Below the pieces are notes generated by a model that saw nothing but the letters and a program-made list of their open reading frames with translations, was not told where the DNA came from and ran no database searches. Made by a program: the position numbers and the translations under genes. Below, one piece after another: positions 40,577-42,919 of a DNA stretch of 64,000 bases (position 1 is its first letter; each line of letters opens with the position of its first letter). The stretch lies in NCBI RefSeq assembly GCF_007748195.1, contig NZ_CP037920.1, positions 1,407,536 through 1,471,535 of the forward strand, in the 5' to 3' direction. Source of the DNA: Gimesia aquarii (lineage in GTDB: Bacteria > Planctomycetota > Planctomycetia > Planctomycetales > Planctomycetaceae).

Positions 40577-40927
40577 ATGATCGACTTAGAATTAGAACAG
40601 ATGATGGAAAATCCCGAGTGGTGTCTTGTACTGAACCATTACAGCCAGTTACAACGTCAGGCTAAGGAACAAAACCCTGAGTTTGATGGTTGGATTGGTC
40701 GCCAGAATAAAGTAGAAGGAGTTGTTTTGGAGCGACTCCCCCGTATTCATGGTAAGCTGATTGCCTTCGATTTACTAAAATTCCAGCTTTCCGGGCGAGA
40801 TTCGGGAGTGTATTATCAAGTGACTCGTTTGGGAGAAAAAATGCTTCCCAGGCTGGAGAAACTGATTACTAGTGCAAGTAATCCTGAGAGCCCCGATTCA
40901 GATCTTACCTATGCAAAGTCGGCATAA
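40577..40927 (+). CDS. Conserved-looking small protein, unknown function
   Basis: A 116-residue soluble, charged protein. I do not recognise a family. The stretch RIHGKLIAFDLLKFQLSGRDSGVYYQVTRLGEKMLPRLEKL in part (about residues 55-95) has the strand-turn-strand look of a winged-helix wing, so a DNA-binding role is possible but weak. It starts with ATG; a clear terminator hairpin follows, which supports a real transcript. The 280 bases before it hold no other gene. Confidence 0.6.
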   Translation: MIDLELEQMMENPEWCLVLNHYSQLQRQAKEQNPEFDGWIGRQNKVEGVVLERLPRIHGKLIAFDLLKFQLSGRDSGVYYQVTRLGEKMLPRLEKLITSASNPESPDSDLTYAKSA

Positions 40928-40965: not shown

Positions 40966-41002
40966 AAACAGCCTCTATTGCTCGAGTCAATAGAGGCTGT
41001 TT
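40966..41002. terminator. 15-bp perfect hairpin between convergent genes
   Basis: Arms AAACAGCCTCTATTG and CAATAGAGGCTGTTT with a seven-base loop, in the gap between the small rightward gene and the leftward cysteine-rich gene. The A-rich and T-rich ends allow it to work in both directions. Confidence 0.88.
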
Positions 41003-41065: not shown

Positions 41066-41524
41066 TTACGCTTTTTTAGGAGCGGGAGCTGGAGCTTTCT
41101 TTGGAGGAGCTGGTGCGTTTTCTGCTTTTGGAGCAGGGCTAGCAGGTGCAGCTGAACCTTCGCAGCTTGAGCAAGGTGAAGCGTTGCAGCACTTTGGTGC
41201 TGGAGCTGGGCAACACTTTGGTGCTGGTGCACAGCATGTTGGTGCTGGAGCTGGGCAGCATACTGGAGCTGGCTTGCAGCAACGAACGCGTTGTGGACGA
41301 CAGCAACGAACGCGTTCTGGCTTACAGCAACGAACGCGCTGTGGTCGACAGCAACGAACGCGTTCTGGCTTACAGCAGCGTTCACGTCGTGGTTTACAGC
41401 AACGAACGCGTTCTGGCTTACAGCAGCGGTTTAGTAACCCAGCTTCTGTGTTTGATGTGCTGAAAGATGCAGCGAACAAAGTCAATGCAGCAATCATTGA
41501 GAGTGTGACAGCTTTTCGAATCAT
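41066..41524 (-). CDS. Secreted cysteine-rich tandem-repeat protein
   Basis: A 152-residue exported protein with no family I can name. The start is ATG 41524, with AGGAG seven bases upstream; the frame extends 19 codons more but those lack signal features. A signal peptide ends near NTEA (residue 28). Residues 33-88 are seven 8-residue repeats of the type RCCKPERV, RCCRPQRV and RCCKPRRE. Next comes a CCPAPAPT/CCAPAPK segment, then NASPCSSCEG, and a tail of Ala/Pro/Lys (KKAPAPAPKK). It has 24 cysteines, all but two in CC pairs, plus many arginines: a likely disulfide-cross-linked wall or matrix protein, or a metal binder. Both ideas are inference. Confidence 0.85.
   Translation of the reverse strand: MIRKAVTLSMIAALTLFAASFSTSNTEAGLLNRCCKPERVRCCKPRRERCCKPERVRCCRPQRVRCCKPERVRCCRPQRVRCCKPAPVCCPAPAPTCCAPAPKCCPAPAPKCCNASPCSSCEGSAAPASPAPKAENAPAPPKKAPAPAPKKA
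41261..41428 (-). repeat. 24-bp tandem repeat encoding the CC-K/R-P repeats
   Basis: Seven contiguous 24-base units inside the cysteine-rich gene. Three-fold similarity is high at the DNA level (CAGCAACGAACGCG recurs on the plus strand), with alternating variants, suggesting growth by duplication of a two-unit block. No spacers, so not CRISPR. Confidence 0.9.
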
Positions 41525-41601
41525 GGTGTACTCCTGAGATTCTTTAATTAAAAGTGGTTCCACTTCGCTGAAAAAAGCCACTTGCTCATTCTTCAGCGAT
41601 G

Positions 41602-41640
41602 TCTCTAAGCCTACGTACTTAGAGAAAACAGGTCTGTTTT
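41602..41640 (-). promoter_or_regulatory. Adjacent hairpins in the leader of the cysteine-rich gene
   Basis: Arms TCTCTAAG / CTTAGAGA (8 bp, eight-base loop, 41602-41625) adjoin a 16-base palindrome AAAACAG-GT-CTGTTTT (41625-41640). Both fall inside the about 150-base leader between the promoter at 41684-41711 and the start codon, so they could be an RNA control element or, for the palindrome, a protein operator. Confidence 0.5.
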
Positions 41641-41683
41641 TCTAGTTTGGTAAGATTTGCCGGTTACAGCAAATACGCTGATT

Positions 41684-41711
41684 ACAATACCAGAACGAAT
41701 TACGTTGTCAA
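41684..41711 (-). promoter_or_regulatory. Strong sigma-70-type promoter of the cysteine-rich gene
   Basis: On the minus strand TTGACA (perfect, 41711-41706) and TATTGT (41689-41684) are 16 bases apart. Transcription would begin near 41677, leaving a leader of about 150 bases. The 320 bases from here to folP hold no gene. Confidence 0.6.
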
Positions 41712-42031
41712 AGTAAAGACAATACAAAAAGTTAAGTTTCTCTAAAAATCCTCAATTTCCTGAAGTAACTCTTTTTGGCTGTTTAATACCGAATATAGTG
41801 ATGATTGAGCGTTTTCCTCCAAACAGAATCTGAGCGAGACCTGACGTTTTCAAGCAGAATCATAAAACAATAGACTGGTTTTGATTGCTCAAAAAATTAT
41901 GATGTCGGATTCAACCTGATAAGTGCGGTCTCGTTTGCTTCCGGCTTGCAAGAGTGATGAATGGGCAGTAAAAGTAGGTATAATGAAGCTTAAACCTTAT
42001 CAACACTGCTATTGATTTGATGGATTATTGA

Positions 42032-42919
42032 GTGAATTCACCACCTCTCGAAAGCTCAACCGAAAAAACAGGTTCTCTGCCAGTCTGGAAGTGTGGTTCA
42101 AAATCGATACCTTTCAGTCGGTTACCACTACTCATGGGAATTCTGAATGTCACTCCAGATAGTTTTTCAGATGGAGGAGAGGCGATTGAACTTGACTCTG
42201 CTGTCAAAAAAGGGTTGCAGCTTGTTCAAGAGGGGGCTGATATTTTAGATGTTGGTGGAGAGTCCACTCGTCCTGGGGCGGAGTCAGTTTCTTTAGATGA
42301 AGAATTAAGAAGAGTGATTCCAGCCATTAAAGCGTTATCAGCACAAACTCAGGTTCCCATTTCCATAGATACAACAAAAGCAGAGGTAGCCAGGCAGGCA
42401 ATCCAGGCGGGAGCCACCATCATAAATGATATTTCGGGTTTTACTTTTGATCAGGATATGATCCCTCTCGCTTTAGAAACCCGGGCTGGCTTGATTTGTA
42501 TGCATATTCAAGGAACTCCACAAACCATGCAAAAAAATCCTGAATATCAGAATGTAGTAACTGATATCAAAGCATGGTTTGGTGAACGTCTGCAAATATT
42601 GCTTGAGGCTGGAATTGAACAGGATCGGATTGTACTTGATCCTGGTCTGGGGTTTGGGAAGAATGCTGAGCATAATTTAGACATTTTGTCGAACATTCGA
42701 GATTTTAAAGAACTGGGTTTTCCTGTCCTTATTGGCCATTCTCGTAAACGCTTTTTGTCGAAATTACTTAATCGATCGGTTGAAGAACGTCTAGCAGGTA
42801 CGATTGGAGTTTCACTCGCTTTAGCAGAACAATCTGTTGATATCCTACGTATTCACGATGTGGCCGCTAATCGTGATGCTTTGTCGGCCTGGGATGCAAT
42901 TTCTCAGCGAGTTCCATGA
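42032..42919 (+). CDS. folP: Dihydropteroate synthase
   Basis: Joins p-aminobenzoate to 6-hydroxymethyl-dihydropterin pyrophosphate in folate synthesis. The 295-residue TIM barrel shows GILNVTPDSFSDGG (about residues 36-49), GGESTRPGAESV (about 75-86), SIDTTKAEVARQA (about 111-123), INDISGF, DPGLGFGKNAEHN (about 205-217) and LIGHSRKRFLSK (about 234-245). The start is GTG at 42032; the first 30 residues are poorly conserved. The stop overlaps an ATG of the next frame by the sequence ATGA. Confidence 0.95.
   Translation: MNSPPLESSTEKTGSLPVWKCGSKSIPFSRLPLLMGILNVTPDSFSDGGEAIELDSAVKKGLQLVQEGADILDVGGESTRPGAESVSLDEELRRVIPAIKALSAQTQVPISIDTTKAEVARQAIQAGATIINDISGFTFDQDMIPLALETRAGLICMHIQGTPQTMQKNPEYQNVVTDIKAWFGERLQILLEAGIEQDRIVLDPGLGFGKNAEHNLDILSNIRDFKELGFPVLIGHSRKRFLSKLLNRSVEERLAGTIGVSLALAEQSVDILRIHDVAANRDALSAWDAISQRVP

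What the first reader, a model, noticed from the sequence alone, without database searches (positions are those of the whole stretch)
41066..41711. Cysteine-rich octapeptide-repeat exported protein with its own promoter and structured leader
Directly seen: seven 8-residue repeats (RCCKPERV type), 24 Cys in 152 residues, an Ala/Pro/Lys tail, a signal peptide, a TTGACA promoter, and two adjoining inverted repeats in a leader of about 150 bases. I know of no family matching this. The pattern suggests a disulfide-cross-linked cell-wall, sheath or spore-coat-like material or a metal-binding protein, and the leader may control it post-transcriptionally.
Basis: partly seen in the sequence, partly recalled or inferred. 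Interest (0 to 1): 0.7.

Follow-up and report, generated by a model that had tools for sequence, protein, structure and literature searches.

The report
Abundant cysteine-rich exported planctomycete protein
This gene encodes a small exported protein made largely of cysteine and proline, with marks of very high expression and a folded RNA leader; it belongs to an unnamed planctomycete protein family that may help build these bacteria's disulfide-linked protein cell wall.

Summary
Window 41066-41524 (-) encodes a 152-aa exported protein with seven octapeptides and 24 Cys. It has its own TTGACA-N16-TATTGT promoter and a leader of about 153 nt. The genome is a Gimesia species. Orthologues occur in 15 of 15 near-complete Gimesia genomes, with 5-8 repeats and an invariant 16-residue tail. 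The leader is single-copy and folds into five helices supported by compensatory changes.

New here:
(1) In 18 further genera a Cys/Pro-rich exported protein, mostly with an A/P tail, lies at the same place, divergent from folP. The octapeptide is a Gimesia version of a wider, unnamed family.
(2) In most of these genera the same promoter type sits 160-280 nt upstream: the long leader looks ancestral, though its sequence is not.
(3) Codon bias exceeds ribosomal genes and YTV wall proteins. Two other CC-rich genes share it, and relatives show part of it, suggesting extreme expression.

Best reading: an abundant, disulfide-cross-linked building block of the Cys/Pro-rich, SDS-resistant envelope (or stalk) reported for Planctomyces. 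The leader probably stabilises or tunes the mRNA; the ribosome site is not masked. Localisation, cross-linking and the leader's role are untested. No Pfam, NCBIfam or Rfam family matches.

The parts
41066..41524 (-). CDS, 152 aa, exported Cys/Pro-rich octapeptide-repeat protein
   Evidence: orthologues in 15/15 near-complete Gimesia genomes
41441..41524 (-). predicted Sec signal peptide, residues 1-28 (by eye; no predictor was run)
   Evidence: sequence shows MIRK + hydrophobic core + ..EA; conserved in alignment A3
41261..41428 (-). seven RCC[KR]Pxxx octapeptide repeats (residues 33-88)
   Evidence: 5-8 copies in orthologues
41069..41260 (-). CC-x-A-P region and A/P/K tail; last 16 residues APAPPKKAPAPAPKKA invariant in the genus
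41706..41711 (-). -35 TTGACA
   Evidence: same type at matching place in 15 of 19 genera
41684..41689 (-). -10 TATTGT, preceded by TG
41734..41751 (-). conserved element upstream of -35 (GGATTTTTAGAGAAACTT), UP element or activator site
   Evidence: nearly invariant in 15 genomes; related pattern unique in the genome
41525..41678 (-). structured 5' leader, about 153 nt (transcription start inferred)
41655..41674 (-). leader helix P1 (loop GUAACC side), compensatory G-C/A-U
41626..41639 (-). leader helix P2, invariant
41602..41625 (-). leader helix P3, compensatory changes at 2 pairs
41565..41599 (-). leader helix P4, compensatory changes at 2 pairs
41554..41563 (-). leader helix P5 GUGGAACCAC, invariant
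41531..41535 (-). Shine-Dalgarno AGGAG, mean unpaired probability 0.53-0.74
40966..41002 (.). bidirectional intrinsic terminator shared with the convergent ORF 40577-40927
   Evidence: inverted repeat kept in the genus
42032..42919 (+). folP (dihydropteroate synthase), divergent neighbour that marks the position in other genera

Best explanation
The gene makes one of the cell's most highly expressed exported proteins. After Sec export the signal peptide is removed, leaving a flexible, basic chain of about 124 residues that is 19% Cys and 21% Pro. Paired cysteines at a fixed 8-residue (then 6- to 8-residue) pitch are held apart by proline and oxidised into disulfides between chains, giving an insoluble, cross-linked layer or fibre in the cell envelope (or stalk), on the same principle as cysteine-rich keratin-associated proteins or chlamydial outer-membrane cysteine-rich proteins. 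The invariant basic A/P/K tail would anchor it to an anionic partner. A strong dedicated promoter, a five-helix leader with an open ribosome site and a terminator form a single-gene unit; the leader most likely stabilises the mRNA or tunes its translation. Shown: gene, conservation, leader structure, promoter, position, codon bias. Inferred: export, abundance, cross-linking, location, leader function.
For: Orthologue in 15/15 near-complete Gimesia genomes. Positional relatives divergent from folP in 37 of 100 other family genomes, 18 genera, median 16% Cys and 17% Pro; 33 of 37 carry a P-rich tail by a loose pattern. Codon bias: G = 148 against null maximum 72, other window chunks at most 84, ribosomal at most 69; avoided codons 2% against 8.7% or more in every window gene over 200 aa; shared by two other CC-rich genes. 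GCT share for Ala raised over neighbours in 18 of 19 genera. Leader covariation. Promoter type in 32 of 38 loci against 0.3 in shuffles. Published: the SDS-resistant Planctomyces envelope is protein rich in proline and cysteine, stabilised by disulfides (PMC3035269).
Against: No proteomic, microscopic or transcript data for this protein. It is not a YTV wall protein. No structure is predicted (pLDDT 42). P. brasiliensis wall analysis lists proline but not Cys among major residues (PMC4334474). The gene is missing beside folP in 63 of 100 sampled family genomes. Repeated codons inflate the codon statistic in part. Ribosomal genes in this genome show little bias, so the bias cannot be calibrated on them.
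Confidence: 0.55

Rival explanations
1. Metal-binding exported protein (metallothionein-like): paired thiols chelate Cu(I), Zn or similar outside the cytoplasm, and the leader responds to metal.
For: 24 Cys in CC pairs, CCK motifs; small size.
Against: Mature protein is strongly basic (pI 9.5); no metal transporter or regulator next to it (neighbours TrkA/TrkH-like, HD protein, folP); extracytoplasmic thiols in an aerobe tend to oxidise; copy number of repeats drifts freely between species; no Rfam metal riboswitch.
Confidence: 0.12
2. Secreted stalk, holdfast or adhesin component rather than a general wall component; the Gimesia octapeptides build the twisted fibrils of the stalk.
For: Planctomyces relatives make excreted stalks of twisted fibrils (PMC3035269, PMC4334474); the octapeptide version is restricted to Gimesia in the sample.
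Against: The positional family is present in many other genera whose morphology was not checked; no direct evidence.
Confidence: 0.18
3. Cationic Cys-rich toxin or antimicrobial peptide precursor, secreted against competitors.
For: Small, cationic, Cys-rich, exported; weak chance matches to knottin toxins in the PDB.
Against: Present in all near-complete members of the genus with extreme codon optimisation, no immunity gene, no protease or modification genes nearby; the toxin matches have E of 0.6 or worse.
Confidence: 0.05
4. The leader is a ligand- or temperature-sensing switch that turns the gene on and off, rather than a passive stabiliser.
For: About 153 nt, invariant unpaired stretches and loops (GUAACC, CUUACC, AGACC), covarying helices; a second genus has its own structured leader.
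Against: Shine-Dalgarno equally open with and without the leader; no internal terminator in the leader; no covarying pseudoknot or alternative pairing found; sequence not kept between genera, unlike typical metabolite riboswitches; single copy per genome.
Confidence: 0.25

Closest known systems
YTV-domain cysteine-rich cell-wall proteins of Planctomycetes (Pfam PF07639)
   Same: Planctomycete-specific, exported, Cys-rich; YTV proteins were found in wall preparations (PMC8567305). This genome has three.
   Different: No YTV domain here; YTV proteins are about 440-450 aa with weaker codon bias; here 152 aa, CC-x-P octapeptides and an A/P/K tail.
Keratin-associated proteins (high-sulfur KAPs) of mammalian hair (from own knowledge)
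   Same: CC-x-P short tandem repeats, low complexity, disulfide cross-linking of a fibre: works-like comparison only.
   Different: No homology (no Pfam KAP family matched); bacterial, exported, basic.
Chlamydial outer-membrane cysteine-rich proteins OmcA/OmcB (from own knowledge)
   Same: Exported Cys-rich proteins giving a disulfide-linked envelope in the same superphylum.
   Different: No sequence match; no repeats of this type in those proteins.
CutF-like exported Cys/Pro-rich sensor proteins (PMC9973294)
   Same: Small exported protein with Cys motif, proline-rich C-terminus and an mRNA stem-loop.
   Different: CutF controls a downstream gene in its operon; this gene is monocistronic with its own terminator and the structure is upstream.

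Membership tests
YTV cell-wall proteins (PF07639) | match to the YTV profile | tested here: not met
   no Pfam family for P0001 at E up to 1; the own-genome YTV search lists other loci only
YTV cell-wall proteins (PF07639) | found in cell-wall preparations | not testable with these tools
   needs proteomics
folP-divergent Cys/Pro-rich exported protein family (proposed here) | divergent position next to folP | tested here: met
   15/15 Gimesia loci that could be read and 37 loci in 18 other genera
folP-divergent Cys/Pro-rich exported protein family (proposed here) | hydrophobic N-terminus, at least 11% Cys, at least 12% Pro, P-rich C-terminal tail | tested here: met
   33 of 37 have the tail pattern. 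The Cys content was part of the search filter
folP-divergent Cys/Pro-rich exported protein family (proposed here) | TTGACn-N16-TATnnT promoter about 160-280 nt upstream of ATG | tested here: met
   32 of 38 loci, 15 of 19 genera; shuffled mean 0.3
Metallothioneins | match to a metallothionein profile | tested here: not met
   no Pfam or NCBIfam match
Metallothioneins | metal bound by reduced thiols | not testable with these tools
   needs assay
Known riboswitch/cis-regulatory RNA (Rfam 15) | score above a family's gathering threshold | tested here: not met
   all hits far below the gathering score
CutF-like translational sensors | stem-loop masking the RBS of a co-transcribed downstream gene | tested here: not met
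   terminator at 40966-41002 and a convergent next gene

The most novel reading that the evidence does not exclude
A major, previously unnamed building block of the disulfide-linked protein envelope (or stalk) of Planctomycetaceae: a rapidly diverging family of exported Cys/Pro proteins, fixed next to folP, extremely highly expressed from a conserved promoter through lineage-specific structured leaders, with Gimesia having evolved hair-keratin-associated-like CC-x-P octapeptides.
Probability: 0.4. Interest if true: 0.8.

Novelty: new variant of a known kind. Interest (0 to 1): 0.6.

Why it matters
[quoted passage not shown] Here is a compositionally matching, apparently extremely highly expressed candidate with a defined gene, promoter, leader and relatives in 19 genera. 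It makes the question of what the planctomycete protein wall is made of directly testable by one deletion or one proteomics run, and offers a structured mRNA leader for study in a phylum with few known RNA regulators.

Tried and rejected
Pfam and NCBIfam: nothing at E up to 1 for the protein. PDB sequence search: the best match, HeliScrew4 (E 6e-5), only shares an 8-residue periodicity with Pro-Glu, without cysteines, so it was rejected as homology; knottin toxins and ferredoxin are chance. AlphaFold2 with 15 orthologues: pLDDT 42, pTM 0.13, so no fold search was made. Rfam: hits below gathering scores. Leader as an RBS-masking switch: accessibility unchanged by the leader. Pseudoknot scan: only 4-pair candidates with no convincing support. 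Leader copies elsewhere: none in the genus, none in the other 57 genera sampled. Upstream element elsewhere in the genome: none. Three automatic hits (L157, L192, L202) were dropped by eye as false ORFs. Ribosomal-reference CAI gave only a weak signal (0.775 against 0.730 expected), because ribosomal genes are hardly biased here; the bias was then measured directly. Class-level search: weak hits outside the family, some with in-frame stops, not counted as relatives. Literature searches found no description of this protein.

Full report
What is there. On the minus strand, 41066-41524 encodes 152 residues: a signal-peptide-like N-terminus (MIRKAVTLSMIAALTLFAASFSTSNTEA), seven RCC[KR]Pxxx octapeptides, a CC-x-A-P stretch and an A/P/K tail, with 24 Cys. 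The mature chain is 19% Cys and 21% Pro with pI about 9.5. TTGACA-16-TATTGT, with TG before the -10, lies 187 nt from the ATG, so the leader is about 153 nt. The gene is bounded downstream by an intrinsic terminator at 40966-41002, shared with a convergent ORF.

Where it is. The window lies in a closed 7.4-Mb genome (G000). Orthologues fetched from named records are Gimesia, and the same contigs fall in the window's own genus, so the genome is taken to be Gimesia. All 15 near-complete genomes of the genus have the gene, between the HD-protein/116-aa ORF pair and folP. Lengths run from 133 to 162 aa, octapeptide number from 5 to 8, and the last 16 residues are invariant.

The leader. From the -35 to the start codon the DNA is more strongly conserved than the flanking intergenic DNA, and a further element just upstream of the -35 is nearly invariant. 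RNA folding of the window leader gives z = -2.6. A five-helix structure was counted on 12 distinct sequences: 98% of cells pair; three helices (P1, P3, P4) have pairs changed on both sides; 12 such cells against 4.3 in shuffles, none of 500 as high; sliding the partners by 1-3 columns drops pairing to 36-53%. The structure was derived from these sequences, so the slide control favours it, and related sequences can beat the shuffles; the compensatory changes in three separate helices are the stronger argument. A covariance model finds one copy per Gimesia genome, always here, and none in the other 57 genera sampled. The Shine-Dalgarno is as open with the leader as without it (0.53-0.74 against 0.34-0.74), and no terminator lies inside the leader. 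This argues against an RBS-masking or attenuation switch and leaves mRNA stabilisation, translation enhancement or protein binding. Stabilising 5' stem-loops are known from ompA (own knowledge).

Beyond the genus. Low-complexity hits in other genera could be chance, but many of them lie beside folP. Anchoring on folP in 160 family genomes and reading upstream of it in 100 non-Gimesia genomes showed a divergent, exported Cys-rich ORF in 37 of them, from 18 genera, after three false ORFs were removed. Median composition is 16% Cys and 17% Pro, and 33 of 37 end in a P-rich tail by a loose pattern, such as VEDAPPPPAAA or VKEVPPPPKEEAAPAPKA. The high Cys content is partly a result of the search filter; position, N-terminus, tail and promoter are not. 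TTGACn-N15-18-TATnn[TA] occurs within 300 nt of the ATG in 32 of 38 loci (15 of 19 genera, Gimesia included) against 0.3 expected in base-shuffled sequence, nearly always with a spacer of 16, at 158-282 nt from the ATG. A long leader therefore appears to be an old feature. In a second genus (g56, nine genomes) the leader is again conserved, with a hairpin kept by compensatory changes, but it differs in sequence and structure.

Expression. Codon usage is far from the genome's norm: G = 148 against a null of 43 with maximum 72, against at most 84 for 89 same-length pieces of window genes and at most 69 for ribosomal/fusA pieces. G-ending codons of four- and six-fold boxes plus AGR make up 2%, against 8.7-28% in window genes over 200 aa. 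Two other CC-rich genes in this genome, which do not align with this one outside the CC-x-P motifs, show the same bias (3-4%), while the three YTV wall proteins show little (15-19%). In 15 orthologues AAC is 97% of Asn codons and GAA 94% of Glu codons. In 18 of 19 genera the GCT share for Ala is higher than in neighbouring genes. Tandem duplication inflates the statistic for one gene, but not the agreement between unrelated CC-rich genes and genera. The usual cause is selection for very high expression.

Mechanism. A highly expressed, exported, flexible Cys/Pro polymer most plausibly forms an inter-chain disulfide network. [quoted passage not shown] This protein fits that composition. For P. 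brasiliensis the wall analysis lists proline but not cysteine among major residues (PMC4334474), so the role may differ between genera. Stalk fibrils are an alternative site. Trypsin would cut the Gimesia octapeptides into very short pieces, which could have hidden the protein from standard proteomics (inference).

Membership and novelty. It is not a YTV protein and matches no Pfam, NCBIfam or Rfam family. It works like known disulfide-linked structural proteins (keratin-associated proteins, chlamydial Cys-rich outer-membrane proteins; own knowledge) without being related to them on this evidence. The positional family, its promoter and its leaders appear undescribed in the literature searched, which covers open-access papers only.

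Limits. No transcript, protein or phenotype data were available. Signal peptide and cleavage site are by eye. Homology between genera rests on position and architecture more than on alignable sequence. Where the gene is absent beside folP it may be lost, moved or too diverged for the filter.

Noticed in passing
G000:C1:1398.3-1398.8 kb (9 kb before the window; locus L219): A second CC-rich exported protein, 155 aa, 33 Cys, CCAPAPK repeats around a KDRCGKMFNRCKDRC core, conserved in the genus about 50 kb from the first, with the same extreme codon bias.
   Followed up: partly
G000:C1:4368 kb (locus L004): A third CC-rich exported protein, 409 aa, with CCAPAPK repeats followed by a region resembling HEAT repeats, and the same codon bias; possibly a partner.
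   Followed up: partly
window 40577-40927 (+): 116-aa ORF of unknown function, convergent with the gene, conserved in all Gimesia loci read, sharing the bidirectional terminator.
   Followed up: no
L119, L123, L124, L126, L130, L135, L138, L140, L154 (genus g56): A different, well conserved leader of about 180 nt before the folP-divergent gene, with its own covarying hairpin.
   Followed up: partly
L051 and L062 (genus g4): CCAPEAA-repeat exported proteins next to a homologue of the window ORF 404-1864, in addition to the folP-divergent gene in the same genus.
   Followed up: no
window 41525-41678 (-): Five ACC trinucleotides (GUAACC, CUUACC, AGACC, GGAACC, ACACC) lie mostly in loops or unpaired stretches and are invariant in the genus; possible protein-binding sites, not tested for significance.
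   Followed up: no
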